From Anarhynchus alexandrinus (taxonomy: Eukaryota > Chordata > Aves > Charadriiformes > Charadriidae): DNA of 64,000 nucleotides. Of this stretch, positions 5,615 to 39,942 are shown in pieces (the first letter of the stretch is position 1; each line of letters begins with the position of its first letter). The stretch covers positions 259,894 to 323,893 of the forward strand of contig VUYV01000226.1 of the NCBI GenBank assembly GCA_008711295.1. Direction: 5' to 3'. The translations under genes were made by a program, and so were the position numbers. The notes beneath the pieces are model-generated. The model was not told where the DNA came from. It saw nothing but the letters and a program-made list of their open reading frames with translations, and searched no databases.

Positions 5615-5687
5615 GGCGGGGCCGCGCTCCGCTCCCCTCCGCTCGGGCGGCTCTGCCGGGCTCCGTTCCCCGCCCCGCGCCGCCCTA

Positions 5688-5771
5688 CTTATACCCTCTG
5701 ATTTGCATGTCAATGAGCCCATTGGCCGCGTCGCGCGGGCAGCCGCCGGAGCGTTGGCCGAACGGGCCAAT
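5688..5771 (-). promoter_or_regulatory. HES6: HES6 core promoter: TATA box, octamer/SOX composite, CCAAT boxes
   Basis: Reading on the minus strand, TATAAG lies at 5693-5688, about 80 bases above the ATG. Seven bases further up is a perfect octamer ATGCAAAT (5708-5701) fused to an upstream CATTG-type half-site. Together the 15-mer at 5715-5701 reads CATTGACATGCAAAT. The known SOX2-POU composite consensus is C[AT]TTGT[TC]ATGC[AT]AAT, so 13 of 15 positions agree; one mismatch falls in the SOX half and one in the spacing. A CCAAT box is at 5725-5721 and another, on the plus strand, at 5767-5771. Transcription would start near 5660. Factor binding is inference. Confidence 0.75.
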
Positions 5772-7311
5772 AGGAGGCGGGCGCTTTGTCTGCGCCGGGG
5801 CGGGGCCGGCGGGGGGGGGGCGAGGCTGTGGTTGCCGTCGGCCGCCGGCATTGTTGGGCCGGTGCGGTCCGGTGCGGGAAGCGATCCGCTGCCGGGGCCG
5901 TCCCCGTCGCTCCCCGGGGCTTGTCGCGGCCCGGGCGGCAGCGCGGAGGCTTGGCGGGGTGCTGGGGAGGGTACGTGCCCGCTGCCTGCAGCGCGGCAGC
6001 TCCTGCTGCGGCCTCGACGCGGTGGGGCATGTCAGCCACTTTCGGTAACCCCCCCGTAGAAACCCCAACCCGCCGCCATTTTACGGGGTTAAAGCCCTGG
6101 AGAACGCGTGGGGGGGTGTTGAGCGTGTCCCCGTTCGTCGGGCGCGGCCGTCGGTGCCAGTATCTGCCGTGACATGTATGGGTGTGCGGCCGATCCGAGG
6201 CCTGAGTGGGAAACAAGAGGGGGCTGGTGATGGCCCCGCTCTGGCTGCCCCGTCCCCATCCAAATGGGGATACTCCCAAAATGGATGGGGAGGCTTTTCG
6301 CCTTGGGCCCTCTCGCGTCCAGGGGGGCTCTGCCCCGGGGTGACACGCTGGTGTGGGGCCACATCACGGCACCACGTCGTGCGCTGCGGCCGCTCTGCGG
6401 CGAGAGGAGGCCGTGCAGCCCTTCCCCAGCCCGGCCGGTGGCCGTGGGGCACTGGGCCCCGTGGGTGGCTCGGTGCGGGCCCCGGGCACGTCGCAGCCCT
6501 GCGCCTGCCCTGGCTGAAGGAGCCGTGCGGGTCGGCCGGCTTTGTGCGGGTAACTTGATGCTGATGGCAGTTGGCAGCTGCAGTTCCCCCAGCAGGCCGA
6601 GGCAAATAAAAGCATTAGGGCTCGTCCCCGAGGGGAGCGACAGGTGTTCGCTCCCGCTCCTTTGTTTCCCTCCTTTTATTCTCCTCGCTAATGCATGTCA
6701 TATTTTTACCGCCCCAGGAAACGGGAGACGCGTCCACCGCTTGAATCGGCGTCGCCGGCACAGAGCTGCACGCTTGCCTCCCTCTACGTGTCCGGCATCG
6801 CTCCCCTCCCGCTCCGGCATACCCCTGGTTCATTTCACCACTCAACGTTTGCCCAGGGAAAACCCTCGGGTTTTGGGGGTGCTGGGGTTTTCCTTGCTGA
6901 GCGGTCCAGCGTGAGCTGGAGTGCACACAGCCGCACAGAGAGCCCCAGGACCCCCGGCTCTGTTAATTTTTATTGATCTGTGTTTGCAGGTCGGTGTATG
7001 ACTTGTCCCGCGTGGTCCAGCAGGTAATGGCACGTGCCCTGAGAAAGGTCGTGGCAGCTCTTACTTGGTACCGCTATCGCTTCATGCCACTTTTCATCTT
7101 GAAAGTGGCGTATAAACATACGTGCCTGCAATATGCTGATCCACGTCCGGTCAAAGAGCACACCGGGATAGAGATGTTCAGCACTGTCTTCTCACGGCCG
7201 TTGCAGAGGAGCACATCAGAGATAAAGCGAACACATGGGACACCTTGGCTGGAGACCTATGCTCAGAGCACTCTGCTTTTTGTATTGCAATGGACAGGAG
7301 ATTTTATTTTT

Positions 7312-7581
7312 GGAAAGGTGCTTCTGATACATTTCTTTTATTTTAAAGCAACGACGCTTGGATTTTGGCAAAGAGTTTGCTCTGTAGGTGACACGTTTCC
7401 TTGCACCAGGCAGGAGCGGAGTGGGATGTACCTGGGGTGGATGNCGGAAAGGTGCTTCTGTTATGTTTCTTCCTTTTATTTTAGAGCAACGATGCTTGGA
7501 TTTTGGCAAAGAGTTTGCTCTGTAGGTGACACGTTTCCTTGCACCAGGCAGGAGCGGAGTGGGATGTACCTGGGGTGGATG
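7312..7581. repeat. Tandem duplication of about 132 bp flanking a single N
   Basis: Copy 1 is 7312-7443 and copy 2 is 7446-7581, separated by one N (7444) and one base. They share an identical long 3' part (the segment ending ctggggtggatg). The 5' parts differ by several substitutions and a small insertion, for example around 7327-7347 versus 7461-7485. A single N between two nearly identical copies is typical of two haplotype contigs joined without being merged, so this is probably a false duplication rather than genomic structure. Confidence 0.8.
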
Positions 7582-10500
7582 ACTAAATCTGTCCTTCCAC
7601 ATCTGAGGCACCCAACACCCCGTGTAACGCAATGTGGAAACTGGTACCATTAATGCACACTAAGCAGAAATGCTCTTTAGGCCAGGCCAGGTCTTCAAGC
7701 ATGTAGAGACACCCGTGACTGCATTTTGTGTATAGTTTATTCACAGTTAGCCTAAATGGGAGGGGGGGGGAAAGGGTGCAAACTACAGTGAAGTAACGGG
7801 TGGCACGATTTTAAAGGAGCCATCTTAGTTCCAAACCAAAGCTGGGCACATAAGGTCAGCAGACACATAAAACCACGCGATTACATAGACAAGGTTATAA
7901 AATGTGCTGTAGAATGTATGTAATCACATGGCACAAGATGAACCCCCAAAGTTTGTGAGCTTGTTTTCTCTTCAGAGAAAGCTTAGCTTTTCCTAGCATG
8001 CATAATCAGAGATGCTCAAACAGCGGCCTTTACACTGGTGTAAATTCTGCTGATTTTCACAAGAAACATTGCACCGCTGTGGCTGCAGACGCAGTCCCCA
8101 AATCTGACAGGCCTCTTTGCTGCAGTTGTTTGTATCGGTTGTGTTTCAGAGCTGGCTTAGGTTAGAGGTGCTGCAGTGTTAATCTAGGAAAACGTCAAAG
8201 GAAGGAGCTCCCGAATTCACCGTGGTCGTAGTTCAGATGTGTCAGGACTTGGGTGATGAAATGCTGGTGGCTGCTGAACAGCAGTGATTTCTCACAAGTC
8301 TCAGATCTGCATGTTTTTTCGCAGTGAGGAGCCACAGGCACAGGGTGAGGACTTCTGGATGCGCGAGAAGAGGAGGCTCCAGCAGTGGGCTAGCAAATCT
8401 TGACCAAGAATGACCAGAGGGAGTTGGCTATGGCTGTAACATCCTATATCTGTCCTGACTTGGTGGGTGCTGATGGCAAGGTATTTTATACATTGCTCGC
8501 TCTTGCTCTGCAGCATGTCTTTTTGTATTTTCTTTGAAAAGCTGCAGGTCAAGTGAGTTGACAAATGCTGGAACCGATTGTGCTGGGCATTAAAAATGTA
8601 TGTGCCATAAATATCAGGGCATTACTAGAGCTGCCATTCTGGAGGAGGAAGGCACTGCAGGCTATCTGCTCTAGCCTACAGGGATAATGTGACATTTTTG
8701 TGCCACTTTAAACAAGTTCCGTCACATCAGGTGAAGCGATTCATGATAACCTCATGCATTTTAATGGAAATGTCAACTGCAATCTAGTAAAAGAAAATGT
8801 TCCTTAGATGCCCTGTCTCATACCTCAGTGCTTGCCCACGCGCGGTGGTTCCTGAAGGAGATTTTGGCAAACCCATCGACTTACCTGTATCATTCTTTCC
8901 AGGTTATACCCATCCCACTGTTTGCTGATGGGGAGGTGTGCGGGCACTGCTTTCTCCTCAACGGAGGGTGGGAGTTTAGCCTGTGCTCTAGCAGGGGGCT
9001 CTGTCCTGCCACTGGCTGGTGCTCCCATGCATGATATAAATGACAGTTTAGCTGAGGAGCAGCATAGTTTTAGCAGAGATAACAGGACCAGTGCCTTGCT
9101 GCTTGTGTTTTCCTGCAAGTCCATGCGTAGAGCAGTATAATGCAGCATATGACAGGTTTTAATTCTTCGTGGATCATGTACGATCGCTAATGCAGCTGTG
9201 GTGACAGTGGCAAAGGCAACTGTGGGAGACAATCCCGCAGCCTCAGCTGCTTGCCATGTGTTCTGGAGGCCCCAGTAAGTGGCAAATCCTCATGAGATGG
9301 GGGAGTCTGCCACATGATGCCTCCCACGCTTCTGTTTGAGCTATCAAGTGCATTTGAAAGGTCTCTGGCTCCCAGAAGAAGCTCTGCAGAGACATAATGC
9401 AACTCTGAAAAGTTTTAAGGACTCTACAGGCAAGTATGCTGCCGTCCACGTTCTTAGGCTTGAGTCAGTAGGTCACCCAGGCTCTCCGTGGATAATATAA
9501 TCAGGGCACGGAATAAAGACATGATGAGCATGGACAAGGTCCATTGGAAATGCTTGAGTAGTTTCTTTCATAAATGGTGTAACATCTGTTGTCGTCGGAG
9601 GCACAAGTTCCTGTCAAAGAGACACGTCATCCTTATAAATATTAATGGTGCATATAAATGGTGGTGGGTGTGAACTGTGGCGGGTGTTAGGTTAATGGGT
9701 GACTTGCTCCTTAGGCATCAGTTTGCTGTCATCGTACTTATTTCTACACTAACACATACAAACTGTTTAGGTGGCAGAGCAAGCGAGGAGCCATCTTTCC
9801 CCTCCTCCTCTCCCCGGGGTCCCTTCACAAATGAAATGTGTACTGTAATTAGTCTCTTGCCTTGTCTCTGATGAAAATTAGTCCCGCTCGCAGAACCGAG
9901 GTGGAGGGGAGCGTGCCTGGAGCTGGGAGAGCTGAGGGCAGCAGGTGATAAATGAAGCGAACGAGGAAGGCTGTTTGGAGAAGTTTGCAGCATTCCCCAT
10001 CAGCTTGATCCTAGTTGCCGTTAGTGCTATCGATTTCTCTGCTGTTGAAAGCAGATGTTTAAGAGGAAAATCGGGTTGAATATCACAACTGAGCTGCTCT
10101 TGGACTTGGGTCTGTTTGTTACTGCAAATTGTGTCTGCTGCCTCGAGCGCTGAGTTTCTGTTGCCCCTTTCAAAAACCATAAGGCTTTGCCTATCCTTTT
10201 TTATTTATCAGCAGACTTGGCAGCCGTGCTCGTGTTCATCAGCTGGGGCACAGAAGAACAGCTCGTGCCAGCCACAGCGCTAATGAGTAGCATTCAAAAG
10301 GGTCTTATGTCCGTTCACAGAAGAGCCCCAAGACTGCGTTTGCCGCCTGTGAAGGCTCAGGTTCCCCTTTGGCTGAGAGCATGGGCCCGGCTTTCTGCCA
10401 TTTCAAAGGTGCTTGTGGAGGTATTCAAATGCAACGTATGGTGGGGCTGTGCTGGGAAGTAGTGAGGACAGCAGAGCCTCTCCCCGTGGGTGCGTGATGG

Positions 10501-13500
10501 GTGGGTGTTGTGCACAACCCTGTGTGCCACTTCTGTTACCTTCTCGTTCTTTCCCCTCACCCTGTTGGGCTCCAGTAGAGCTATGTCTGAACTATACATC
10601 ATTTCAAACTGCCTCAACTCGTACCGTGTAGCCCACGGCCCGTTGTGGGTGACTGTGGCGGGGTCCCGTGTCTTGCGAGGTTAGAGAGACCATCGCTTGG
10701 TCACGCTGTGTTTGGGGAGGTTATTTCAGGGTGAGAGTAACTATCTGAAGCAAGTACAGAGTTTTTTTCAGGTGGATTAAAAACCCAATAATCTGCCTGT
10801 GGTGCTTCAGGGAGCAGTTTTGTGGTGTTTCCAGGGAAGCCTCTTCTATTTGATTTCTCTAATATTTTGGGGGTTTGAAAGTTTGAAAGAATTATGGGGG
10901 TGACTTCATCATAGGCTTTATCCTGTCTTTGTAACAGTGGTGGGCATATCACTGGTCCTCCTCCTCTGCAAGATATTTTCGTTAGTTCTTAAAAGAGTTA
11001 CAGGCATCCTCATTAAAGTACATTTGCTTCAGAGAAGGTGCTGAATCCCTTAGGCACAATCTCGACGAAGGCTGAAAGCTTTTCTAAGAGTGTGCCCTTC
11101 AGAGCACGTTTCTCCTGACGTGCAGCACGTGGCCAGGGTAACTCCCAGTCCGTACCTCTGGCAGTGACGCTCCAAGTTTGTTGACAGGACACAGGTTTTA
11201 TTTTTATCAGATTAACATGTACATAATCGGGCTCTGAACTTTGCTCCCGTGTGTTCTGTGAAATGCTCTAGAAAATGCCCGCTTTCACAGTCTCTCACGG
11301 GTTTGCGTTCACATTTCGAATGACGTATCTGGAGGTGAGGGAAAAAGCCCTGTGCTCTCAGGGGGATGTTTGCGAGATGCCTTTTAGCAATGACAGAATA
11401 TATTCTGTGGTCAGTTTTGGCAAACGGTGGTCTTTCCTAAATCAAAAAGAGAAATATTTTACAGGCAGAGACCAGTCCCCTTTACGCAAGAATCCAGAGA
11501 CCCATTTTTGGTGTTTAGTATAAATACTGGGTGGGACCCTATTGCAAGAGATACCTCAGATTGCACAGATGCATTTCCTGGAGGTATCCATGGGCAACCC
11601 AGGACATGACCACAGTAACAGATAGTTGTGGATCTTGTCTTAAGCGTGCCCTGCTCCCACTCTGGGCTGGTTGTTTCCCCAAGGAGGTGACACTTTATAG
11701 CCCAGACTTAATGGTACAGAAAAGGACCCTTCTGAGGACCTGGTCTATTGTGTACTGTGGAAAAGGATGTCTTTTAACGACTCTGAGTTTAGAGTGGATT
11801 TTAGCCTTGCTGTCCTGCACAGCTCATTTACTTGGCATACTGCTCAGCTGGTTTGTGTTGGTGGTTGAGTCCCTTAATCCGCTGCAGAAGCTTCTTGCAT
11901 CCGTTTTGGTGAGGAGCCATCATTTAGAGTGATGCTGGAAGGCATCAATAGGAGGTTGCGTGAAGGAAGCTTCGCGAGCGGATTTGAAAGCGGTGATGAG
12001 TGCTGTCATTCCTTCCTCTCCATATGTGTTTGCCCTTCTTTCTGGAGAAGGTTAGCACGGTTTAAGAGGAGCATAATGTTTTTGGCTACTTGAACTGAGA
12101 AATAGCTCTGGAACTTCAGCACAGAGAACCATAACCTCTACAAGGTGCTTTCTGATACAGGCAATGCACAGCTGAATCCAGTCAGCTACTGGGCAAGGCG
12201 CTGCTGCTGGCTGGAAACCCACTGCCTCCAGTTCAGCTGGGAGACCAATGTGGAGCTGGCAAGTTGGTCCCAGTAAATGTCATTTGGGTGTTAGAAATGG
12301 GGTGGCAACAAAAGCGTTCAAAGGCTTTGCAGACTATGGGTAGATAGATTCTCTCTGGATGGGGCCAGTGAGCATTACCCGCCTGGCTTTCCCATTCCCA
12401 AAGGCTTGCTGGGTTCCCACGGCTCATGAATGTGATGCAGGATTACAGCTTTCAGAGGAGGACATAATTCCTCTGCTTAGATAGTCATTTTTCTTCATGT
12501 CTTTTTCTAGTGGAACATAGGTGCTTGCAGGAAAAACGTCTTCCTGCTGTCCTCTGTGCACTGCCTTTTGATCATGTGCGGCTGCTCAGTACTTCCACTC
12601 ACCTCTCGGCAGTCATGGGGAGGTGAGGGAAGGCACCTTTGGAGGGCTGAAGTGAAGGTGCTGTGCCTCCAAAATCTGTAAGAAACGATTGCTGTTCCCG
12701 TGATTATGGCTGTGTCAATAGGCACAGAGCGTTGTAGCCAGCTCACGTGACCAGACACAAATCACAGAAGCAAAAGAGCTCAGGAAAGAACAATGGAATC
12801 ACGGGAAGTCAGGAACATCATGCGGGCTCTTATTTGTGCTATGCAAGGTCACTTAAAAGAGAAAAAAATGCTAGTTCGTATAAAACAATGTTATTTTTTC
12901 TAGGGAATTAAAAATGCTTTATTCTATTTTGGGGGTTCGTTTCTTTTTTTAAGCTCTGGAGACAGGGCAGCACTATCCTCTGCAGCATGCCTTGTTTTAT
13001 GGAGCACGTTAGGAAGGGGATCATTTACTTGATGAGTTCAGGATCCAGTTTAACTGGACTCTGAAATGTTGATTTGGGGGGGGAGGGGGAAGCCATTTTA
13101 TTGGTTTCTGGGGATTACCTGATGTTCTCTAAACTCCAGTAAAAATTTCTTAGCACAGCCACAGTTTCTCTGTCCTTGCAATTAATAGACAAAGTTTGCA
13201 CAAACAGGGACTTCTGAGCAAAGTGGTAGGACTAGATCCACTAGAGGCTAGTGCGTGTTGCTGTGTCAAATAAAAATCCCAATGATATACAGCCTAAAAC
13301 TGTAATTAGAGGGCAGCTCTGAAAAACAACATACAAGCTGAAAATGCAGGCAACTTTGGTACACTGAGTTCTCGGTTTCCTTCCCTCCAACCCCTTTCAG
13401 AGGTGTGGTGTGTGGGCTGCCAGGGCTGCATGAGAGCAGGGGTGGCTTGTCGCCAGAGCTGCTGAGCTGTCTGGATCCCAGCAAGCTCATTTGACAACTG

Positions 13501-13925
13501 GACCACCTAAAATGTCTACGGATAAAAGTAGGGCAATGAAAGGTAGGAGAGCAGGCATTTGGAAGAGCTGCTTGTCCCTGATTAAGCGTCTGGTGAGTAA
13601 CAAGGAATTCAAAGAGCAAGATGTTGGGGAGCAAGAGCCCTGGGGTTGTGGCTGGTGACTTCCTAAGCGCATTTGTGTCACAAGAGGCAAGTGCTGGAGA
13701 AGGTGCAGAAGGTGGCCCTTGCTCCAGGTGGTCTATAAAATGCCCCTGACTTATAGGGGTAAATGGCACAAACTTTGTTAGGGATGTGGTTTCAGGCCAT
13801 AGGAGGGAAATCACTAAAGCTTGACTTTAGAGACACCTCCAGCTCCTGCTCTGCTGGCCATCTACTCTGATGCCTCCCTTAACTTTGCTTTTGAAGGCTT
13901 TCTGGCACAGCTTTGCTAGACTTCA

Positions 13926-13979
13926 GGATCTGAGAAGAAATCAACTTGTCAGGGATCTGAGAAGAAATCAACTTGTCAG
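13926..13979. repeat. Exact 27-bp direct tandem duplication
   Basis: Two identical 27-base units lie back to back, 13926-13952 and 13953-13979, each starting ggatctgagaag and ending acttgtcag. No third copy is present. Perfect identity points to a recent slippage or duplication event. The units encode nothing recognisable. Confidence 0.95.
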
Positions 13980-16439
13980 TCCCACGCCTCCGTGCTGTGT
14001 GCCTGGGATCAAGCCATTCACCTGCAAGATGCAGCTCAAGCAGTTGGCCAACACCAAACCCACAGTTGCCTGGTCTTGAGCAGAGCCCACTTCCTCTCTC
14101 TAACACCCGTAATTAGAGACAAGCCCAGAAGGAGAAACAAGACTGATTCCTTGAAGAGCTCATCTGGAGGATCAGGAAGGACAGAGCGGATGGCTTCGGT
14201 GCAAGCTCTGAGGTAGGCTTAAGCTGGGTGGAGTCAACCCTCAGGCTTGACCCTAGATGTCAATGTAAACAGATCCTCTGGGGACTTTCATTATGGAAAG
14301 CATGGGCAAAACTGCAAGTCCCTGCCTGTCAGTGCTTGAAATTCAAACAGCGCAGGTAGGGCTGAGCTCCCTCCTGCAGCTGCCTGGGAAGAGCCTTGGC
14401 CTCACCTCAACAAGAATGGAGAGCTCGCTCAGCCCTGGGCACGGCAGGGACCTGCGGCATGGTGGTTGGGGTGCGAGACTACTGCAGAGCAAGGGCACCA
14501 GCGACCGTGGGTGACAGACCGGCAAGGCTGGACCAAGGCAGTGCAGGATTGAATGTGCCTCCACTGGGCAGAGGATCAACAGGTCTCAGCATCCTCTGGG
14601 AGACAGTCCTCAGAGGCACTGATGCTCTTCCTTATGGATCGAGAAGGCAGGCCCTTTGGACCTGGCACCAGACTCCACGAGATGAGGGCCCTTCTGTTTG
14701 AGCAGGATGTATGCTTGCCCGGCTGCCTGCCAGCTCTTCCTTATTGTGAAGAGCAATAAGCCCAGGAGGGCAGGGGGTGACACGTGGTAGTGGTAGATGA
14801 CTATTGAGCATGTTTCTGCCTGGTGCTGTGATAACAGCCTCTGTTCTGGGCACGTCACATGTTGTGGCATGCTGAACTCCTTCAGTTTCTCACCATTTTC
14901 CCTCGCATCTCTCCTGGACAGCTTTGTACCTTGTGGAGCTGGGTCAGGTGGATGTATGCAGGTTCTAGTCATACTCTTCTGCTGCTTTTCCAAATCAGCT
15001 GATATGTATTTCTTAGTAGTCTCTATACTGCCAAAAACATGTGGTGTTTTTTGGGGAAACTCTTCTGGTGATAAATGTAATCCAAAGGGCAGCCAGAAGA
15101 AGCTGTCACAAATTCCTGTTGGCTGTCATGTGGGTTGTGTTTAGCAGGTACTGCGAGTGCCAGAGCGTGTGGTTTCCTTCAGTGTCTCCCCGCAGCTCTG
15201 CTGACACAGTCATCTCTCCAAAAACCCTTCCTGTTTTTTAGGATTTTCTCTTCTAGGAAAAGTTCCTTTATTATGATGACTATTTTGGTTTTACGTATTC
15301 ATTTATTTTGTATGGTGTTATACAGAAGATAAGAGTTGCAAAGAGAAGAGTTGAGCTCCAAGAAGGAACTTGAACATCTACCATCTAAACATAGTGTCTG
15401 AGAGTTAAGTCTCTTGAAAGGGAGGTCTAACAATCCATGTGCTTAGCAAGAAGCTGTCTGGAAGTTATCAGTAGGAGGCATTGTATGGGTGTATCTGAAA
15501 CCGTCCTGACCCCTGGAGAGCTTCAGACAGGCACTCATCCATTCTGGCTCTAGTCCCATCTCATAAGGGTGAGCACACACAGTGCTCATGAGGAGCACTT
15601 CTTCCATCAGGATAGGTACTGCCTTTGCCGTCGTAGTCTCTTGGCGAGCCCAGTCCTGCATCAAGTTGGAGACTTGCTTTGAATTTTTCGTTTCAGGCCA
15701 AGCAAACCCACCTCTCGGGATTGTGAAAGCAAGGAGGGGAGGGGAACGTGGGCTGTGGGCGATGGGTTAAGAGAGGGCAACTGTGGTTTCGGGTCCTGAC
15801 TCTAAGGCCTGCTTTTATTCTTTTTGTGTCATATTGCCCAGGAAAAGGCTTTATGATGTTTGTGTTCAGGCCCATGTGGGGAGGACAATTGACTGATTGA
15901 CTCTAGTGCCGTCTCTCTCTTTGTTGTATCAGTAAAGTTATTTCCATAGAATTCATCTGATGGAGGAAGTGATCTTGAAAGCCTCTAGTCTAAATCTGAT
16001 CTTCCTACTTCTTTTCCAAACTGAGCCACTACCTGAGGCTCCCCAAGGCTACAGGGGCCCCATCATGGTGTGTGGTAAGTCCCTGGAGAGGGCAGGAGAA
16101 ACATCAGTCGGTGCTCGTAGCAGATTGCCGTGGTGGTGCGGCAGCGTGAGCAGGGCTGACATTCTGGACCCACACAGGTGTTTTGCGTTTGAGCATCTCA
16201 TCACTAGATGATGGAGCAATGCTCAGTGATCGTATTGCTCTTTATTACAAATTATTAAACATTCTCTTTTCACCCTAGACTTCCCAGTATTTCACTGCAA
16301 CGCCTCTTCTGTGGTCCTGCTGGATAGAAATTGCCTGTATAAGACTACCCAGCATCAGGCTTCTTCTGAGCTCCAGAAATGCTGAGTGCCGGACTGTGGG
16401 CAGGACTCCAGATTTGTGCCAACGGCAAGTGCAGTAATG

Positions 16440-16895
16440 TCCAATTCTGGGACTCCAGGGCCACAAGGGTTGTGAGAACATGGAGGGGGTCTGGTAGGGA
16501 ACTACCAACATGGTCAGGACCTGGTGGAGGTGGGCTTGTTTAGTCTGGTCAAGAGGATGCTGAGGAGAATCTAGCAACATCCCACAACTACTGGCAGAGC
16601 AGTTATAGAGTGATAGAGTCAGGCTTTTCTCATTTGTGGCAGATGATAAACCAAGGGGCAGTGGCCACACAATGCAGCTTGCAAGGTTCAGATCAGATTC
16701 TGGGAAACCCTCTCTTCCACGGCGGTGGTGCAGGACAGGGACAGATTGCCCAGAGAGGTCAGGAAATCTCCCTCCTGGGTGGCTTCTGTGACTTAGTTAG
16801 ACAAAGCTACAGTCAACCTGCTCTACTGCTGGCAATGGCTGCACTTCAAGGAGGTTTGGACTAGAGACCTCCACAGGTCCCCTCCAACAAGCATT
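16440..16895 (+). mobile_element. Degraded CR1 LINE 3' fragment
   Basis: Several segments resemble the CR1 3' region in order: a stretch like the conserved glutamine/arginine-rich tail near 16520-16560, a decayed 'gacagattgcccagagaggt' piece near 16740, and 'ggtttggactagagacctccacaggtcccctccaac' type sequence near 16853-16890. The last matches the well-known CR1 3'UTR phrase with several substitutions. The frame is full of stops. The element is old and its ends are approximate. Confidence 0.6.
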
Positions 16896-17751: not shown

Positions 17752-17805
17752 AGGGAGAGGAGAGGAGAGGAGAGGAGAGGAGAGGAGAGGAGAGGAGAGG
17801 AGAGA
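17752..17805. repeat. (AGAGG)n microsatellite
   Basis: This is an uninterrupted pentanucleotide array of about ten AGAGG units on the plus strand. It forms a pure polypurine tract, which can adopt triplex (H-DNA) structure. The array translates as repeated ERRGE but is not a gene. Confidence 0.95.
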
Positions 17806-18597: not shown

Positions 18598-18617
18598 TTT
18601 GTTTGTTTGTTTGTTTT
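18598..18617. repeat. (TTTG)n microsatellite
   Basis: About five GTTT units lie in tandem, a short simple repeat without coding content. Confidence 0.85.
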
Positions 18618-29100: not shown

Positions 29101-29883
29101 TTTTCTTCCTCCACCTCTGTCTGCTGAGACCTCCATCAGGACAGATGCTGGGGTTTCCCTGGGTTTGCTGTGGTCTGGAAAGTAATTATAGCCATCTGGG
29201 GATCCCTCAGGAAGGCCCTGCCACTCTCTCCTGTTGTAAAAGCACCTCCGCTGGAGAAGATCCGGGTGTGGGAGGCGATGGGCTTGTTTGTTGGAAGTGT
29301 TTTGTTGGGAGGGGAGGTGTGCCAGCCTGCCTCACTGCCGGCAGCACCGCTGGCTGGTGTGCTCGGCTGCCAGGCACTGTGTTGTGGCTGCGCCAAAGCC
29401 AGGCTGGGCAACCTGACCAGGAGCTGCACTGTGCTGAGGAATACCCCCGGCAGCATCTCCAAGTTCACCGCCTTTGGGCTCTGTCCTTCAGCTACCACTG
29501 ACCTGGGTATGGCAATGTAACCGGCTGACGCAGTGCTCAGAGCAGTGCCAGTTTCCCTGCAGCTGCCAGAGGAACAGCTGGAACAGACAATGGCTCTTTT
29601 CAGGCGTGATACCCAGGCTTCCTTGCTCCTTCTTGCCCGTCTGCAGGTATCACCTCAACTCACACGCTTCCCGAATGAATCACTAGTGCCTGGAGTGACC
29701 AGGGACCACCTCCAGCAGCAAGGGGCAGAGATGCTGAGCAGAGCCCGCTACTCTGATATGGATATCTCCTCCCAGCCGGTTGATAAGGAGCCAGGGCTGG
29801 AAAAAATTCCTCATGAAAGAAGCAAAGGGTCACTCTGCAAAAACAAGGCATCTTCCTGCCACGAGTTAATCTTCCCAAGCCAG

Positions 29884-30775
29884 TAAGTTTGCAGACGACA
29901 CTAAGTTGGGTGGGAGTGTTGATCTGCTTGAGGGTAGGAAGGCTCTACAGAGAGATCTGGACAGGCTGGATCGATGGGCCAAGGCCAGTGGTGTGAGGCT
30001 CAACAAGGCCAAGTGCCGGGTCCTGCACTTGGGTCACAACAACCCCATGAACGCTACAGGCTTGGGGAAGAGTGGCTGGAAAGCTGCCCGGCCAGGAAGG
30101 ACCTGGGGGTGTTGGTTGACAGCTGGCTGAATATGAGCCAGCAGTGTGCCCAGGTGGCCAAGAAGGCCAATGGCATCCTGGCCTGTATCAGGAATAGTGT
30201 GGTGAGCAGGACTAGGGAGGTGATTGTCCCCCTGTACCCGGCACTGGTGAGGCCCCACCTCAAGTGCTGTGTTCAGTTTTGGGCCCCTCACTACAAGAAC
30301 AACATTGAGGTGATGGAGTGTGTCCAGAGAAGGGCAACGAAGCTGGTGAGGGGTCTGGAAAACAAGTCTTTTGAGGAGCGGCTGAGCGAGCTGGGGTTGT
30401 TTAGCCTGAAGATAAGGAGGCTGAGGGGAGACCTTATCGCTCTCTACAGCTCCCTGAAAGGAGATTGTAGAGAGGTGGGGGTTGACCTCTTCTCACTAGT
30501 AACAAGCATTAGGACAAGAGGAAATGGCCTCAAGTTATGCCAGGGGAGGTTTAGATTGGATATTAGGAAAAAGTTCTTCACAGAAAGGGTTGTTAAGGAT
30601 TGGAATGGGCTGCCCAGGGAAGTGGTGGATTCGCCATCCATGGAGGTATTTAAAAGACGGGTAGACGTGGTGCTGAGGGACATGGTTTAGTGGTCATTTT
30701 GGCAGTGTTAGGTTGATGGTTGGACTTGATGATCTTAAAGGTCCCTTCCAACCTAGACAATTCTATGATTCTATG
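29884..30775 (+). mobile_element. 5'-truncated CR1 LINE with reverse transcriptase C-terminus
   Basis: The element spans about 890 bases in plus orientation. It starts within the reverse transcriptase region (FADDTKLGG at about 29,889, the catalytic ADD block) and runs through the long C-terminal tail ([49 protein letters not shown]). The frame stops at 30,690. The non-coding tail follows and ends in ATTCTATG repeats at about 30,762-30,775, the CR1 3' hallmark. The only coding break seen is a one-base deletion near 30,052, after which the frame shifts; the rest of the tail (29,974-30,690 frame) has no stop. This suggests a fairly young insertion. CR1 copies are usually 5' truncated, as here. 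Confidence 0.93.
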
Positions 30776-33700
30776 ATTCATGCTTTCTTGTTGCCTTTAT
30801 GTCAGCTGCAGGAGGACAAACATGGCCTGATCTGGCGGCAGACATGCACTTCAGCTGGCAGGCTGACTTCAGACAGAGCTGATGCTCTGCATGATGTGAG
30901 CTGGGCAGTTTTGATCAGGTAGTGAGACCTGGGTTGACTGTACCATTGCCAAGACAAGGGCAGAACGGTAGGAGGGCAGTTAGGTGATGCAAGTCTGGTG
31001 GGGAGTGTGGATCAAACAAGGCTGAGAGCAGCGGGAAGGCTGGGCCAGACACTGCCCGTGCTGTGGGGAAGGCTCCAGTGGGTATGTGTGTACAGAGGGA
31101 CTTTGAAGAGGCGAGTGCTGGAACTGGGAAGACAGTGGAGAAGTGATTCATATGACAGTTGGTTGGAGAGGTGCTTTTCAAGTCCTGCCTCATCTCTTTA
31201 ATCTGTGCAATCCCTGGCATCTTGCTAGTGCTTTTCATCTAGAGATCTCCGAGATGAATACAATCATCACCCCCAGGTAGGAGACTGGAAATATTCAGGT
31301 GCGGAGCAAGTGGAGGTGAGAGTTGGGTTTTGAACAAGCCATGGGTGAGGTAAGCTGTACTGGTAGGCTCAGGGCCTTCCTCTAGTGTCTTGGGTCTGTG
31401 TTGGACAGCCCTCTCTCCTTATGGTTTCTTATGGACGAGGGCGGACAAAGCCTTGGACAGTGGCAGAGGTCTTCTAATAGGTGTGTGCTCATATGTGCAG
31501 TGTCAAACTATGGGAAACACCAGGAGGCATTGGTCTCCTTTTCCCCAGAGGATTTTGACAGCAACATGTCTGGTTTGGAGAACCTGTCTGTCCGGGTATT
31601 GCTTTTGTTGTGTTCAATGGTCTGGACGGTTTTTCCATCACACCTATCAAAATAATATCTCAGCACTTTTCAGGGGTGCATGAGGTGATGCGATTGCTAT
31701 CCCATGTGGATTGCTTGTTCTCACAGCCTCTCCAGTGGGAAGAGTGCATATCTTAAAGTGCTTGGCTTTGTACTTTATTACTCGTGTAGGCTAGCGAGGG
31801 TAGGGCAGGGGAAGGGCAGGGGACAGAGAGGTTTGAAGTTTCGTGGTTGCTCCTGAGTGGTTCTTCCCACAGCCGCAGTGGGACCCAGGAAATTCTCATG
31901 GGGATGCTCTGTCCTTGCTGTGGGAGCTCCTCTGTCCTGAGGAGCTGAGCCATGGCTCTCCTGCCTCACTTCACCATCCTGCTTAACATCTCTTCGGAAC
32001 TGTGTGGAAATGCTTATTTCTCCCTTTCTGCCTTCTCAGTCAACAGCTTGAGCAGTGGGAGATACTGTGACCATGTGGAGAGGTTGCTGGGGGAAAGCTA
32101 AGCTGTTTGCTGAGCGCAGTTGTGCTTGTGGGTTGTGCTGCAGAAGGTTACCTGCTCCCTGGTATGATCCATACTCCATCCACTGGCTGTCTGGGACAAA
32201 AAGGAGTGGCTTCCAGAGCCACTCTGAGGTATTTCTCGCCTTGTAGTTTTGTGATTGTGTAGGGCTTTACAGTTTTTCAACGAAAAACATTTTTACTGTA
32301 GCAGCCTGGAGTGAAGGGTGAGGGCTGTACGGGGGCAGGAAGGTGATTCCAGCAAGGTTTGCTCCATTCCTGTTGGCAGCCACCAAAAATAGTGCTCATG
32401 GCCCAGAACAGTATGAACTCCACCTCCCTATGGGAGTGCATCTCCTGGTGAGCTCTGGGACTTCAGAAAACACCAACATCTCAGCTAAAGGTGGGGGAGC
32501 TGCCGTGTGCTGTGTCAGGGGTCGGCGGTGCCGGGGCTGTGACAGATGGCTCCTCAGGGGCTGGCCAGGTCCCCGGATAATCCCATTAGGGTGCTATGCA
32601 AAGCCCAGATGCTGGTGGCCGGGCTGTGACAGCGAGCGGGGTCCCGATGGAGCCTGTGCAGGAGGTCGAAGCGGACACCACGCCAGGACTGTGGAAATGC
32701 CTGCGTGGCTTATGTAAAGCCCTATTTCATACAGCTGACTAAGTCCTGTGCTTTTAAGTACACATGGTGTGCCAGGAGCCTGCGAGAGCTGCCCTAAATG
32801 GCCGTACCAATAGAGGATAAAAGTGAAGAGGCGAGCGCTTCATTAGATGGCTATGAAAGGTGGTAAACCAGCTCCTTGCAGCACAGGACAGCATTTCTGA
32901 CGGGGCAGCAAGACCAGCCACTGGGTTTCTCCTCTCTGCAAATGAATTTCCAGCTGAACTATCTAGGCCTGTTAAGCAGAGAAAGTTTCAGGGTTGTGGA
33001 CTGTGTGTTTAAAGCAAGGTTGTGTCGTTATGCCAATTTGAGCGAGAAGTCATTCTACAGGAGACTTCTGCTGCGTGGGTATGCTCAAGGACAAGGGGTG
33101 CTGGGCAGGGGCAGATGGAGAGAGGAGAGGACTTTAGGAAGCTCCTAGTGAAGGAAGGGATAGCTCGGCAGTGGTTTCTTCATCCTTCCTCTTACCCCAG
33201 CGAAGCCGTTCCCTGCTGAGCGGCTTTCCCACAGCCACGAAGATTCTGCCCTGCCATTTGCCCTGGCCTCCTTGGGAAGGGGACCCTGGAGAGGAGGCAT
33301 TGTTCCCAGGTCACCTCGAGAGCATTTGGTGTTTTGCAGGGCAGAAGGAACAGTCCTCCAGCCCCAAAGAAGAGCCCCTTCGAGCTCTTATTAGAGGACC
33401 AGATCTCTCTGTGGCAGCAGATGTGGGATTGATTGCAGAAGTCCATTTTCTTGGGCGGTGTTGGCCATAGAAAACTTGATGAAAATGCTTTTTAACTGCA
33501 AATGTGCGGTAGGATTTGTGACACCTAATGCAGGGACCATAGGAGAGTCTCAGAAGCAGAGCGAGTTCCCAGGCTCTGGCAGGTCTGCAGCGATGCCTCG
33601 GGCAGCAAGCCACGTTCTCACCAGGGCTGCGATTTATAAATGAAACATCTCGGCAGTGCAGATCAGATCCAGGACTGGCTTCAGCTTCTGCTGCGTTATT

Positions 33701-36700
33701 CATGAGTGTGTGAAAGCTCTGAAAAATGTGGCAGACTTTGGGTTAGGTTCTCAACGCAAAATTACTTCTCATGAGATGAAATATGAGCACGTCCTTGTTA
33801 AGACAGGAATGTATACACTGGAAGTTGTGGGATAACGGCGTATATAAAGGGAAAGTGAAATCTTTGGTGTTCTGCTGTCGGTGGGTTTGTTTTTACTTCC
33901 CTCCCAAAAGGAGCACTTCACTAGTGAGCTACAAGCACTCGCAGCCACGGCAGTGTGGTTCGAATCAGTTTGAATCAGTTTTGCCCCAGAATTGCTTCTG
34001 CATAGGGTTTTGCAAGGTGGCTTGCTTGTGAATGTGGAGGATTAGGACCCCCACCACAGCTCCTGGAGAGGTCACGCCGGCAGCCCGGGGTCTCCTCTTT
34101 GCCAAAGTGAGCTCTCAGTGAAAAGGGTCAGCTGGAAATTTGGCTCGTGTTCTCTTTTTAAGCAGCATGCTCAGCCCTCTTGTGTAACAATCTGCAAGGG
34201 CTCAGCACTGCTCCTAAATCCCTAAAGCGTTTTGGCCTGGTTGCTGTGGGTGACTGGGACTGTGTGGGTCAGAAAGAGGGTGCTCTGGTGCCCTCGGGGT
34301 GGGAAGAGGAGTAAGGGAAAAGGCAGGGATGCTCAGAGGCCCCGAGGGTTGTGTGTGTCTGGGAGAAGACAGCATGGCAGGGCCGTAAGTTCTCTTACAT
34401 GCTCATGAGCCTCTGTACTTTCCTAATGGGAAAGGATTTGATCCTGTTTTCTGAGAAATAAGTGGCAGTTCTGTTGGTTTCCATGAGAGCTGCTCTGGGA
34501 GTGCAGTTTATGTAAAGGGAGCTGCAATGCATGTGGGTATTTTGTCCACCTGGGCTCATGTTATTATATAAATCTACAATTGCTTTCTGTTAAAGGCAAG
34601 TGGGGGTCCTGCGCCTCGGGTCCAGCCTTCCCCACGTCCCCGTGTACATAGCAACCAGCCTCTGCTTTTTAATGCTCCATTCACAGCTCCATGTCTGGAA
34701 CAGGACTTTGGCAAGGGACAAAGCCCAGATCTGCACCAGGCTGGCCCAGCCCTGCGTGTGCTGGGTGAGACGTGATGCGTCTTGTGACCGCTTCTAGCAA
34801 ACAGGTCTGTCTGGCCATGCCCATGCCGAGGAATCTGGTCTGGGTGCTTGTCTTGGCCCTTTCCAGTCTGCATATCAGGTGAGGACCTGGGTGTGCAGCA
34901 TCCCCGCCGTCTGCGCCTCCGAACCCCCGGTGCCTTGGGCATGCAGCCCCAGGTCGGAACGGTGGTGCGGTCTTGAAGGTATCTCATCTAGGTGATGGGT
35001 GGCTGAGTCCTGGGCTGCGCTGTGGGACCCCCGGCAGCTAAGAGACACAGCTGCTGGCACCTGCTGCAGATGTGAAAACAGCATCTGTACAGGTGCTGCT
35101 GCTGTGTCCAGAGCGTGTGTGATGGTGCAGCTTCAAACACTGATTTACGAGGACAGTGTTATCTACTCGGCGTTAGCCAGCTGGCTGGGGGAGCCTCTCT
35201 ATGCCTCCTTTTCCCTGGGGAGATGATAGCAGTAGCTGGCAATGCATTTTTCGGTTGTCAGGGGAGAGGTGCCTACACTGAATAACAAAGTATTATTGCT
35301 CTTGTACAGTCCTGGTTGTGGTGAAACCAGATGGGTTTGAAATAAATATGGAGTTCCTTTGTCAAACACAAGTAATAGCTGCAATTCATGTATATGAAGC
35401 GCTGTGAGTAATCTCCTGCCTTTCTGAAGAAATGTTTTATTTACTGAAAACTGGTGACTCGCAACAGATTCCTGCAGAGTTAGTTGGATACGTGACAGGG
35501 ACATCATATAAAAGGTCACCATCAGTTTGAAATGAAGGCAATGAAAAATGAGTGTCTTGTACTAAAACTGTTCCTGGAGGTTGTTGGCCAAGTATTGCAG
35601 TCTCACTTTTCTATTTTTAAAACTCTCTCACCAGCTGCGATGTGACCCTTCCCTCCACACCCACAACAGAAAAAAAAGCCTTACTGATCAGAAACAGGAA
35701 ATAATGAAACTCACTGACCACAAAGTATTCTCAAACGCACAAAATAAACAAGCAGAGATGGTGAGAAATACATATTTCCCACTGATCTCTTTTCAGCGCG
35801 GTAACCATAGCCGATAATTATAGTCGCTGGGGATTTACAGCTTTTAGAGGGAAAGTATGTTTTTAAGTTGATGCTGTCAAACCATAGCGAAATATTTTCA
35901 TCACGGCCTCTCCCAGCGTAACAATAATGTGGCCAGAAGTGCCATGAGATGCATTACTGACACCATCTAGAAGTAAATGAAAACTTCAGGCTCCATCTGC
36001 TCCTCTTGCCTGCCCCACCAGTGTGCAGACCCCAGCGCTGGGCAATGGAGGTTCCTCTGGTGGGTGCAGCCATGCGGGCTTATGTGGGGTGGGGACTTTA
36101 TCTAAACTCACCGATAAACTGGGAAGGTCTTTAATGTCCAGGATCTTGTGGTTTGCTTTGCCTGAATGTTTTCCCTGCCGGTGAGTATTCTGTGCGCTTT
36201 GCAGTGGCTGCGTGCTCAGGCTGGCCCCAGCTCCCACCCTCCCCTGGATATTTGTGGTGGGATGATTTGAATGTATCTTCTGTATTGGTGGTCACTCCAG
36301 AGGTTCCCGTCAGTAAAGGAGGAAGTCCTAATTTTCAGGCAGAGGGTGGAAACGGAGGTTGAGGTACAACGGAGGTTGAGCTGTACAATTCTGTGTCTTT
36401 ACCTGCCTTCTGACCCCGTGGTTGGAGAAACCTCCATGCAGCTATGTGTAGGCCAGTTGTTTCTCCTACCACCCTTATGCCACCGCTCCTAATGGCTTTT
36501 CAAGAGGGCTGGATAAAAGGGAGAGCTTCACAGAAAAAGATGCTAAACCCAGAGGTGATGGTTTTCACTCCTTCGGCACATCATCAAATAGATCTCGCTG
36601 CATAATGAGCCCCTCTGAACTGCCGGTCCATTAATTAGTATGGGCAGTGTTTGTTTAAGGGCTCCTTGCTCTTTTATTTTAGCTGTGAAGAACTTTTAAC

Positions 36701-37089
36701 TGCCTTTGAGATGAAAAACTGGGACCAAATGTCGCCAACAAGCCGAGCAGATTTGCCCCAGTCTCCCTGGTCCAATTTGCAGGGAATTTTACCTTCTGCC
36801 CTTTAGATTGTCACTGTGATTCCCTTATAAGTGAAAGCTAAAGCATCGATCCAGGCTGATAAACCCAACTCGTGATTTCTTTCAAAACTTTTTAAGTGTT
36901 GCTGTGATCCAGGTGATCCTGTCTGTGTATGTGTGTGTGTGTGTGGTGCATGCTGCTTTGTCTGCAAAGCATCAGGGGCAAAACCCAAACCACCTCTTTA
37001 GGAAAAACAGTTTGTGAAAGAAGAAAACACAAGCAGATCCGCAGGTACTGTTTATTCAGAGCAGACAGGACAAGGCAGGGAGAAATATC
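30776..37089. other. Non-coding DNA downstream of the second HES gene
   Basis: No exon was recognised in this stretch. A (TG)n repeat lies at 36,922-36,945. The 36,540-36,790 segment is AT-rich with homeodomain-like (TTAATTAG near 36,632) and FOX-like (TGTTTGTTTAA near 36,649) words and could be a regulatory element just 3' of the gene. The remaining open frames are short and random. Confidence 0.5.
36922..36945. repeat. (TG)n microsatellite
   Basis: This is a slightly interrupted TG dinucleotide repeat (gtctgtgtatgtgtgtgtgt and onward) on the plus strand. It has no coding value. Confidence 0.9.
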
Positions 37090-37811
37090 AGTCATTATCT
37101 TCAAAAAGTTTATTTAGAACTTTTAGTTACGAAAACACCAAAATAATCCCTAAATATAACTATTTGTAACATATATATACACAAGTAGCTCTCTAATTTA
37201 ACAGTAATGTCAGGACGTGCAGGTGGCCGGGAACAGCACAGCCAGAGTGAGCAATCCAGAGAGCATTTCTAAACAGTCTAAAAACTCCAAACCAAGTCTC
37301 TCCCTTTCTCTCTTTTTTTCTAATCACTGCAGCATTTTTACAGGAATCAGAACTGGAACCTCCTGCAGCTGCACGGGGATAATAATAAAAAGAAAAAGCA
37401 GAAGAGATCGTCCGTTTACCTCTTTACCCGACAAAGTGATCTCAGTGGCTTACGTGAGATCTGAGAGGTAAGCTTGATGCCAGAGAGGCTTGCTTGTTGC
37501 TCGTTGTCTTGTATTTTTATTAATAGGAAGTTAATTATTTTAAGAATGTGAGACAAGAAAGCTATATAATTAATATACACTAAAGAGCAGGAGAGGATTC
37601 TATACAATAATTTAGATGTATTAAATAAATAAAAAATAATAGCAGCCTTCTACAATGCAGGCTACACGTAGGTTTACTTCGGCTTGAAGTACCCTGGTCT
37701 TTAGTACACCTACAGGAACAGACTTGCTCCACAAGTGTTTTAAAGAAACATATCTATAAGATACATACGTAAGAGTGTCTAAGGTTAGGATAATCATTTT
37801 AAAAACACACT
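37090..37811 (-). other. 3' untranslated region of the second HES gene
   Basis: AT-rich sequence runs from the TAA at 37,812-37,814 to just past an AATAAA on the minus strand (37,109-37,114 on the plus strand). In mRNA sense it contains overlapping AUUUA pentamers (AUUUAUUUA, near 37,620-37,634), the core of an AU-rich decay element. It also has one perfect Pumilio-type UGUAUAUA at 37,174-37,181. Both suit the short-lived mRNAs typical of HES genes. The end point is inferred from the poly(A) signal; other AATAAA copies lie within, for example near 37,516, and could give shorter forms. Confidence 0.6.
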
Positions 37812-39720
37812 TTACCACGGTCTCCACATATCTAATGACCCCATTCTAGGGTTGTTATGGGAAAAATTTGGCTGCAGGACCTGTCTGGGAGGTGCAGCAT
37901 CGACCTGGCTGAAAACCGACAGCGACGGCAGCTGGAAGGAATTTTTCGAAGCCTGCTTGTTCTCCGTGGGGTAGAAGCGCTCCTGTGATGGGTTTGTGCC
38001 CCGAGTGCTCCCCTTCGGGCTCAGGGCGCTTTTTGGTGTCAAGAGAGGCTGCTGAGATGGGCTTGAAGACCTCAATGCTGCTTTGCAGGTGTCTTCACCG
38101 GACCTGGGTAGGGATTTCAGCAGGTGGTTTAACAGGCGCGCCCCGAGGGTCTTGTCCATCCACTCGCAGGTGAGGAGGAGGTTGTGCACCTCGTGCATGC
38201 ACTGAATGTACCCAGTGCTGTACCTCTGCTGGGCTTCCAGACCCACTTTGGTGTCAGCTGCATTGGAGAGGAGACAAGGGGAGTTGGTGAGCGGGTAAAA
38301 GCTGCCCAGCACGTTTCTGCTGAAGAGCATTCACCAGGTTCCCCTCTGCCAGGGCTCCCGGGGGGCTCGTTGGCTGTGCTGGCTGTGGGCTGAGTGAGCT
38401 CTACTGTAAGGTGAATCCAACCAGGGAAGTGGTGGAATCACCATCCCTGGAGGTATTTAAAGGACGGGTAGACGTGGTGCTTAGGGACATGGTTTAGTGG
38501 TGTTTTGGGCAGTGTTAGGTTAGTGGCTGGACTCAATGATCTTAAAGGTCCCTTCCAACCTAGAGGATTCTATGGATCGCCTGCAGGGCGCAGGGAGAAG
38601 GTGATGCAGGGCATGAGGCGTCCAGGCAGGCAGCTCTCGTGTCCTGCTGCCCACCACCAAGGACAAAACTAGACCAAAACGCAGAAAGCGACTCTGGAAG
38701 GAAAAATCCTTCCGTGGGTTAAGCAGTGCCCGGCTCCATCTCCCCATCTAGTGGAGAAAGCCAAACTCAAGCGGCAGCCAGGGGCCTCAACAGGTTTGAA
38801 AGATGCTTTCGCCAAACTGCCAGCGGGTTAAACCTGCTGGCACCCCCCTGCCCCGGCGCTGCCCGCGCTCGCAGGGTGGGGGGACAGGGCACTCACCCAT
38901 CAGCTTGCTGCTCTGGATGTTCTGGAGGTGCTTCACCGTCATTTCGAGGATGTCTGCTTTTTCCAGTTTAGACTGCTGATGAGGAAAGAGCGCGGCAGTT
39001 AGAGGCAATGAAGGATTTGTACCATGCCCAGTTTCTCAAAAGAGTGAGACACTCCAACAACAAAACAATCCCCCACCAGCAAAAGGACAAAAAGCAGCAT
39101 AAAACCCAGCACTTACATCCAGATGAAATGCACCCACAACAGTCTCCTTCAGCTGGTCCAAGCAGTTATTAATCCTTTCCCTTCGCTTCCGCTCAATGAG
39201 GGGTTTCCTTAACTGGCAGGGAAAAGAAAAGGAGAAGGAAAAATTGCAGTTGGTATTTTTTCTTCCTCTCCCTGCTGCCGTTCAGTGAGGGGTGAGGGCC
39301 CCATCCCCGGCACAGGGTGACGCGGTCCTTGGTGGGAACAAGATATGGATGTAGAGTGCGCCCTCTCCAGCTCTGATCATGGCCTGACCCTTAGATGGTA
39401 TGAGCTCTCAATTCTCTCACTTCCAGTCATTTTAAGCAGAGTTTACCCAAATGAAACAGAGAAGCACCTTTCTAAGGCGGAGAAAGAAAGCAGGAGAAGC
39501 ACCCACATGGCTTAAATTCAGAGAAAGCATCTTTATAATAAGAGCAAAAAAAATTATCCCCTTTCTCTTTCCTAGAAGCAGTGCCCGTAGCCCCAGTACC
39601 CATCTTTCATGTGCCACACGTGGGGCTGCCGCTGGCACGCGTGGGAGCAGCAGCGCAGAGGGGACCTACCTTCCTCTCCTCCTTGGTGCTGGTGAGCTTG
39701 TGGGTGGCTGCAGCGGTCAT
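37812..39720 (-). CDS. HES family bHLH-Orange WRPW repressor, hes8/her8-like (4 exons)
   Basis: Exons are 39,670-39,720, 39,117-39,212, 38,897-38,975 and 37,812-38,257. All introns are GT-AG (457, 141 and 639 bases) and the join gives 223 residues plus TAA. The basic region is KPLIERKRRERIN (residues 20-32) with the family proline. Helix-loop-helix extends to about residue 70 (CLDQLKETVVGAF, SKLEKADILEMTVKHLQNI). The Orange domain is at about 86-125 (YSTGYIQCMHEVHNLLL, LLNHLLKSLP). A Ser/Pro-rich linker leads to the C-terminal WRPW at 220-223, the Groucho/TLE recruiter. Intron positions and phases (0, 0, 1) equal those of HES6 in this window. The loop is two residues longer than in HES6 and shorter than in HES1 or HES5. 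By recall it best fits her8/hes8 of fish and frog, or the gene called HES6-2 in chick. The expected role is a nuclear, Groucho-dependent repressor in neural progenitors. The exon 3 acceptor is a CAGCAG tandem site, so one Gln is optional. The gene name is uncertain; the gene itself is not. Confidence 0.92.
38417..38577 (+). mobile_element. CR1 LINE 3' fragment in intron 3 of the second HES gene
   Basis: About 160 bases match the same 3' segment as the larger CR1 at 29.9-30.8 kb (gaagtggtggaatcaccatc, then gatcttaaaggtcccttcc, then attctatgg). It lies in plus orientation, antisense to the host gene, wholly inside the 639-base intron 3 (38,258-38,896). It is a severely 5'-truncated insertion with no coding capacity. 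Confidence 0.92.
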
Positions 39721-39839
39721 TGTAATCCAGCCTGCCCGCACCGGTGGGATGGGACGGGATGGGATGGGCTGGAGGTACTCGGGCGGTGGGTCGCTCCCGT
39801 TCCCCACGGGCTCTTTGCTGCTCCGCTGCTCCTCCGCTG

Positions 39840-39942
39840 TATTTATAACCCAGAATTAGCATGTGAAAGGGGACTTGCCTTGGCGGGACTTCTTTTCCCA
39901 CACGAGGGGTCGAGCCCGGAGGTTTGTGGCCATCAATCAAAG
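39840..39942 (-). promoter_or_regulatory. Core promoter of second HES gene: TATA box, octamer/SOX composite, RBPJ-like and TCF-like sites
   Basis: Reading on the minus strand, TATAAATA lies at 39,847-39,840, about 127 bases above the ATG. Seven bases further up is an octamer variant, ATGCTAAT (39,862-39,855). With its upstream half-site the 15-mer at 39,869-39,855 reads CTTTCACATGCTAAT, agreeing with the SOX2-POU composite consensus at 13 of 15 positions. TGTGGGAA (39,902-39,895) is a perfect match to the RBPJ/CSL site of Notch-responsive genes. CTTTGAT (39,942-39,936) is a TCF/LEF-type core. The TATA box and octamer are unambiguous strings; use of the other sites is inference. Confidence 0.7.

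What the first reader, a model, noticed from the sequence alone, without database searches (positions are those of the whole stretch)
5688..39869. Identical SOX-POU composite element plus TATA architecture in both HES promoters
In HES6 (15-mer at 5701-5715) and the second HES gene (15-mer at 39,855-39,869) an octamer lies exactly 7 bases above the TATA box. In each case it is joined to a SOX-like half-site (minus strand: CATTGACATGCAAAT and CTTTCACATGCTAAT). Each agrees with the SOX2-POU composite consensus at 13 of 15 positions, and the two differ from each other at only three positions. Identical spacing in two genes 34 kb apart points to a shared ancestral core promoter or strong selection. 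It would give both genes a common SoxB1/POU neural-progenitor input.
Basis: partly seen in the sequence, partly recalled or inferred. Interest (0 to 1): 0.75.

Follow-up and report, generated by a model that had tools for sequence, protein, structure and literature searches.

The report
Shared octamer-TATA promoter of HES6 pair
Two neighbouring bird genes for nerve-cell formation, ancient duplicates of each other, carry the same short POU-factor site at the same distance from the TATA box, probably an inherited core promoter; whether a SOX factor also binds there is uncertain.

Summary
On the minus strand HES6 (HES6-1) and the second gene (HES6-2/her8) each have an octamer ATGCWAAT exactly 7 nt above TATA; the 15-mers agree at 12 of 15 positions. 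In the 1.19-Gb genome ACATGCWAAT-N{0,30}-TATAARTA has 39 places; the only two with gap 7 are these two promoters. With a loose SOX half 8 places remain; the other six are CpG-poor. Three HES5 paralogues have TATA without an octamer.

HES6-1/HES6-2 are a published ancient linked pair. Zebrafish her8a (HES6-2) has a predicted SOX/OCT module near -128 to -104 and depends on SoxB factors; the bird element is at -149 to -135. [quoted passage not shown]

I favour an inherited POU-octamer/TATA core promoter, with a SOX partner plausible at HES6-2 and doubtful at HES6-1. No second vertebrate sequence could be read.

The parts
4673..5614 (-). HES6 (HES6-1) coding region, read as four exons, ATG at 5614, C-terminal WRPW
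   Evidence: Pfam HLH and Hairy_orange on the protein without exon 1; Period_C exons about 19 kb away
5688..5693 (-). HES6 TATA box TATAAG (TATAAGTA runs 5686-5693), begins at -79 from the ATG
5701..5708 (-). HES6 octamer ATGCAAAT, -94 to -87, 7 nt above the TATA box
5709..5715 (-). HES6 SOX-like half CATTGAC directly 5' of the octamer (fits CWTTGW, lacks TTGT)
5721..5725 (-). HES6 CCAAT box above the element; a reverse CCAAT (ATTGG) lies at 5767-5771
37812..39720 (-). HES8 = HES6-2 (her8) coding region, read as four exons, ATG at 39720, C-terminal WRPW
   Evidence: Pfam HLH and Hairy_orange
39842..39847 (-). HES6-2 TATA box TATAAA (TATAAATA runs 39840-39847), begins at -127 from the ATG
39855..39862 (-). 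HES6-2 octamer ATGCTAAT, -142 to -135, 7 nt above the TATA box
39863..39869 (-). HES6-2 SOX-like half CTTTCAC (two mismatches to CWTTGT)
39895..39901 (-). RBPJ/Su(H)-type GTGGGAA, -181 to -175; zebrafish her8a has GTGGGAA at -203 to -197
   Evidence: PMC3082574 passage

Best explanation
A retained ancestral core promoter of the Hes6 tandem duplicates. A POU factor binds the octamer on the coding strand, 7 nt above TATA and next to the TFIID site, and helps drive both genes. Candidates are POU3F class in neural tissue, POU5F3 in the early embryo, or ubiquitous POU2F1. At HES6-2 a SOXB protein probably co-binds the degenerate half-site, beside a separate RBPJ site. At HES6-1 the SOX half is doubtful; timing probably comes from proneural factors acting elsewhere and from NF-Y at the CCAAT boxes. 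Shown: sites, spacing, rarity, gene identity, linkage. Inferred: binding, cooperation, ancestry of the element, choice of factor.
For: Same octamer-7 nt-TATA register. The only two gap-7 cores among 39 places in 1.19 Gb (reversed control 6 places). Of 8 places with a loose SOX half plus TATA (reversed control 2), the 6 outside HES have GC 0.31-0.44 and CpG o/e 0.00-0.30, and gaps other than 7; HES6 and HES8 have GC 0.78 and 0.61, CpG o/e 0.96 and 0.64. Locked similarity beyond nulls (41 of 50,000; 0 of 360). The 7 bp beside the octamer agree at 5 of 7 (P 0.013 for equal base frequencies). Three HES5 paralogues lack an octamer in the stretches read. Identity: 17 residues from RIN to KLE in HES6, 19 in HES8 (exon frames), KLEN versus KLEK, Period_C exons about 19 kb away, matching the published HES6-1/HES6-2 criteria. 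Zebrafish her8a: SORY_OCT1 module at 873-897 of the scanned promoter; combined knockdown of five SoxB genes reduces her8a in 100% of n = 18.
Against: No second vertebrate promoter could be read, so conservation is untested. The her8a module's letters are not in the text I read, so it may not be the same octamer; the conversion to -128 to -104 is mine; single SoxB knockdowns had no effect. The local alignment of the two promoters picks a GC-rich repeat, not the octamer (score 26; reached by 30, 45 and 137 of 2,000 shuffles for 150, 250 and 500 bp; the 150-bp window cut 2 bases off the HES8 15-mer). Octamer-TATA neighbours in general are common. In a pou5f3 target study the names her8a, hes6 and her13 do not occur in the main text. 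No E-box CANNTG lies in the 400 bp above the HES6 ATG, so the proneural input must act elsewhere. HES1- and HES4-like promoters are N runs.
Confidence: 0.6

Rival explanations
1. True SOXB1-POU composite elements in both promoters, giving both genes a common progenitor input. It overlaps with the best explanation on ancestry and differs on the SOX step.
For: Right order and abutting halves; 15 and 14 of 15 to CWTTGWNATGCWAAT, best two of 127,972 window positions. SoxB dependence of zebrafish her8a. SOX-POU elements of zebrafish her3 bound by B1 SOX in vivo (PMC2865518 passages).
Against: Neither half has TTGT; HES8 fits the strict consensus at 11 of 15, reached by 35 window positions. Chick Hes6-1 is post-mitotic and downstream of NEUROG2. 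On the zebrafish her3 reporter Pou5f3 weakened Sox3 activation, about 8-fold to 4-fold (PMC12199784 passages), so joint sites need not mean synergy.
Confidence: 0.25
2. POU-only or POU-dimer (PORE-like) element: the bases beside the octamer contact a second POU subunit or nothing. It overlaps with the best explanation and differs in denying any SOX step.
For: Both genes have A, as in PORE, where SOX sites have T (position 6); HES6 12 and HES8 11 of 15 to the recalled PORE consensus. The octamer is intact in both, the half-site is not.
Against: Fit to PORE is poorer than to loose SOX-POU: 6 and 42 window positions reach those scores. SoxB dependence of her8a.
Confidence: 0.25
3. Coincidence or independent gain in two promoters.
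For: Two sequences only; no convincing alignment elsewhere in the promoters; loose octamer-TATA pairs are common in the genome.
Against: Both gap-7 cores of the genome fall in sister genes; nulls.
Confidence: 0.08

Closest known systems
Zebrafish her8a promoter SOX/OCT module (Webb et al. 2011, PMC3125270; abstract, sections 6 and 11 and passages read)
   Same: HES6-2 subfamily gene; predicted SOX-OCT module roughly 100-130 bp above the ATG; reduced expression on SoxB knockdown; a Su(H) site further up (PMC3082574)
   Different: Predicted by a motif program, not mutated in the text read; no TATA spacing given there; not extended to hes6.1
SOX-POU composite elements (Fgf4, nestin, zebrafish her3 and hesx1)
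   Same: SOX-type half near or abutting an octamer
   Different: Here the TTGT core is lacking and the element sits in the core promoter, 7 nt from TATA
Octamer-TATA promoters of histone H2B and immunoglobulin V genes (recalled, not tested)
   Same: POU octamer a short way above a TATA box
   Different: As recalled, orientation or distance to TATA differs
HES5 cluster promoters of the same genome (L046, L047, L050)
   Same: TATA promoters of tandem Hes paralogues; two of three pairs share a TATA-locked 15-mer (13/15 and 12/15; the third pair 6/15)
   Different: No octamer in the stretches read

Membership tests
SOX-POU composite element | Octamer ATGCWAAT as the POU half | tested here: met
   Exact in both genes
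SOX-POU composite element | SOX half with TTGT core | tested here: not met
   TTGA in HES6, TTCA in HES8; HES6 fits only the looser CWTTGW. The core rule is recalled
SOX-POU composite element | SOX half abutting the octamer in one orientation | tested here: met
   Same layout in both 15-mers
SOX-POU composite element | Joint SOX and POU occupancy and cooperation | not testable with these tools
   Needs ChIP, gel shift or reporter; nearest evidence is SoxB knockdown for zebrafish her8a
HES6-1 (gene at 4673-5614) | Shortened bHLH loop, Asn in place of the conserved Lys, WRPW, near Period2 | tested here: met
   17 residues RIN to KLE and KLEN, WRPW, Period_C exons about 19 kb away (the family model does not tell PER2 from other PER genes). 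The HES1 loop length is partly recalled; the serine-175 feature was not tested
HES6-2 / her8 (gene at 37812-39720) | Loop intermediate between HES6-1 and HES1, Lys kept, linked to HES6-1 | tested here: met
   19 residues RIN to KLE and KLEK from exon frames (my joined translation slipped one base), about 34 kb from HES6
Ancestral core promoter of the Hes6 pair | Same element and register in other vertebrates | not testable with these tools
   No relative found in genome contigs or viral contigs; 26 viral hits of the DNA pattern showed no HES-like coding by a motif screen

The most novel reading that the evidence does not exclude
A POU-octamer/TATA core promoter with an adjoining SOX-type half has been held at one fixed register in both hes6.1 and hes6.2 since their duplication, before teleosts and tetrapods parted. 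It would be a stereospecific POU-TFIID core-promoter module whose partner drifted from SOXB (hes6.2, earlier) to POU alone (hes6.1, later), helping to stage the two genes in sequence during neurogenesis.
Probability: 0.3. Interest if true: 0.6.

Novelty: new member of a known kind. Interest (0 to 1): 0.4.

Why it matters
Hes6 genes differ from most Hes genes in that they favour neuronal differentiation, and what drives them is only partly known. A short, testable element shared by both sister genes would give a common handle on their regulation, tie the zebrafish SoxB result for her8a to a specific site, and offer a rare case of a TATA-anchored POU site kept by two diverged duplicates. If it is not conserved in other species, it is a local curiosity.

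Tried and rejected
A general HES promoter feature: rejected, since the three HES5 paralogues have TATA but no octamer in the stretches read; HES1- and HES4-like promoters are N runs and could not be checked. A general octamer-TATA spacing rule: the loose pattern is too common to be informative (4,574 places, of which only the first 100 or so were listed) and gap 7 is not enriched among 39 strict places. Plain recent duplication of the promoter: local alignment shows only a GC-rich repeat. Cross-species check: genome contigs, viral contigs and the DNA pattern gave no vertebrate relative. Print check: 'HES6, promoter, octamer, TATA box' held 0 papers; 'HES6 promoter' 2 papers, listing only; 'hes6, octamer, sox' 12 papers, listing only; 'ATGCAAAT, Hes6' 2 papers, listing only; 'Hes6, promoter, Sox2, Brn2' 18 papers, listing only. 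Within those searches I saw no report of an octamer in the HES6 promoter. Onichtchouk et al. 2010 was not held. The HES5a promoter (L046) has a partial ATGCA near TATA, at a different spacing; left as chance.

Full report
What is there. The window lies in a 1.19-Gb genome held as G000; I take it to be a bird from the size and the gene pair, not from a label. Two Hairy/E(spl) genes lie on the minus strand. HES6 has its ATG at 5614 and HES8 at 39720. Their exons read MAPSFRPGK...RKPLVEKKRRARINESL...WRPW and MTAAATHKL...RKPLIERKRRERINNCL...WRPW, with HLH and Hairy_orange domains. From RIN to KLE there are 17 residues in HES6 and 19 in HES8 (exon frames). HES6 has KLEN and HES8 KLEK. Period_C exons lie about 19 kb to the left of HES6. 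These are the published marks of HES6-1 and HES6-2, which are linked near Period2 in chick (PMC2996300, abstract, section 5 and passages). According to PMC3125270 the pair is ancestral and HES6-2 was lost in marsupials and placental mammals.

The element. HES6 has CATTGACATGCAAAT, 7 nt, TATAAG; HES8 has CTTTCACATGCTAAT, 7 nt, TATAAA. The 15-mers agree at 12 of 15 and the 7 bases 5' of the octamer at 5 of 7. The window has 6 octamers ATGCWAAT on both strands. Locked at TATA, the best 15-mer match of at least 12/15 appeared in 41 of 50,000 Markov pairs and in 0 of 360 other TATAWR sites against either promoter.

Genome-wide. ACATGCWAAT-N{0,30}-TATAARTA has 39 places (reversed control 6), of which two have gap 7, the HES pair. 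Other gaps have up to 3 places each, so gap 7 is not enriched; what stands out is that both gap-7 places are sister promoters. CWTTSWNATGCWAAT-N{2,30}-TATAARNR has 8 places (reversed control 2). The S was put in to admit HES8. The six others have gaps 3, 5, 5, 6, 13 and 27 and lie in DNA of GC 0.31-0.44 with CpG o/e 0.00-0.30, while HES6 and HES8 have GC 0.78 and 0.61. A looser octamer-TATA pattern has 4,574 places (reversed control 765), and the HES6 15-mer alone has 6 copies, five of them in DNA of GC 0.39-0.43. Rarity thus belongs to the combination.

Is the SOX half real? Recalled consensus scores are 14 and 13, 14 and 11, or 15 and 14 of 15, by version. Both genes lack TTGT. Chance of the half-site fit is 0.008 for HES6 and 0.06 for HES8 against CWTTGT with equal base frequencies. 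Independent support comes from zebrafish: a motif program found a SOX/OCT module at 873-897 in 1000 bp upstream plus 100 bp downstream of the her8a ATG (-128 to -104 by my conversion), and combined knockdown of five SoxB genes reduced her8a in 100% of n = 18, though single knockdowns did not. The bird HES6-2 element is at -149 to -135. A Su(H) site GTGGGAA lies above it in both species: -203 to -197 in zebrafish (PMC3082574 passage) and -181 to -175 in the bird. Distances between the two sites differ. Reports on Notch dependence of her8a differ by stage: not needed in the early neural plate, needed later.

Against a common progenitor input. [quoted passage not shown] chick Hes6-2 comes earlier, at commitment. 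Within 400 bp of its ATG, bird HES6 has no CANNTG E-box, so the proneural input must act elsewhere; HES8 has two, one of which (CACATG, -145) overlaps the element. In zebrafish her3 both SOX and POU sites are used and bound by B1 SOX, yet Pou5f3 weakened Sox3 activation of the her3 reporter.

Mechanism. The simplest reading is a POU factor on the octamer beside TFIID, inherited by both genes, with a SOXB partner likely at HES6-2 and doubtful at HES6-1. Steps shown are the sites, their register, their rarity and the identity of the genes. Binding, cooperation and descent are inferred. PORE-like POU dimers fit less well than loose SOX-POU but share the A at position 6. The local alignment of the two promoters finds only a GC-rich repeat (score 26; 30, 45 and 137 of 2,000 shuffles reach it in 150, 250 and 500 bp; the 150-bp window cut two bases off the HES8 15-mer), so if the element is inherited it is an island in saturated sequence.

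Limits. No other vertebrate genome could be searched; collections at hand gave no relative. HES1- and HES4-like promoters are N runs. The confidences of the first two rivals overlap with the main reading and are not meant to add to one.

Noticed in passing
window 29938-30690 (+): Open frame that looks like the reverse-transcriptase end of a CR1-type LINE (recognised by eye, not searched).
   Followed up: no
window about 7310-7580: A stretch of over 100 bp occurs twice in tandem, nearly identical, with a single N at 7444 between; may be an assembly artefact.
   Followed up: no
L048 (C92) and L049 (C398): The upstream regions of the HES1- and HES4-like genes are runs of N, so their promoters cannot be compared.
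   Followed up: partly
L046, L047, L050 (C655): HES5 trio: two of three promoter pairs share a TATA-locked 15-mer (13/15 and 12/15).
   Followed up: partly
L046 near position 946: HES5 copy with CATTTGTATGCAGCC about 6 nt above TATAAATA, a partial octamer at nearly the same place.
   Followed up: no
window 39895-39901 (-): Single RBPJ-type GTGGGAA above the HES6-2 element, in the same order as in zebrafish her8a.
   Followed up: partly
window 5849-5855; 39963-39969; 39936-39942: Further SOX-type WWCAAWG matches within 250 bp of the HES6 and HES8 ATG; chance expectation not computed.
   Followed up: no
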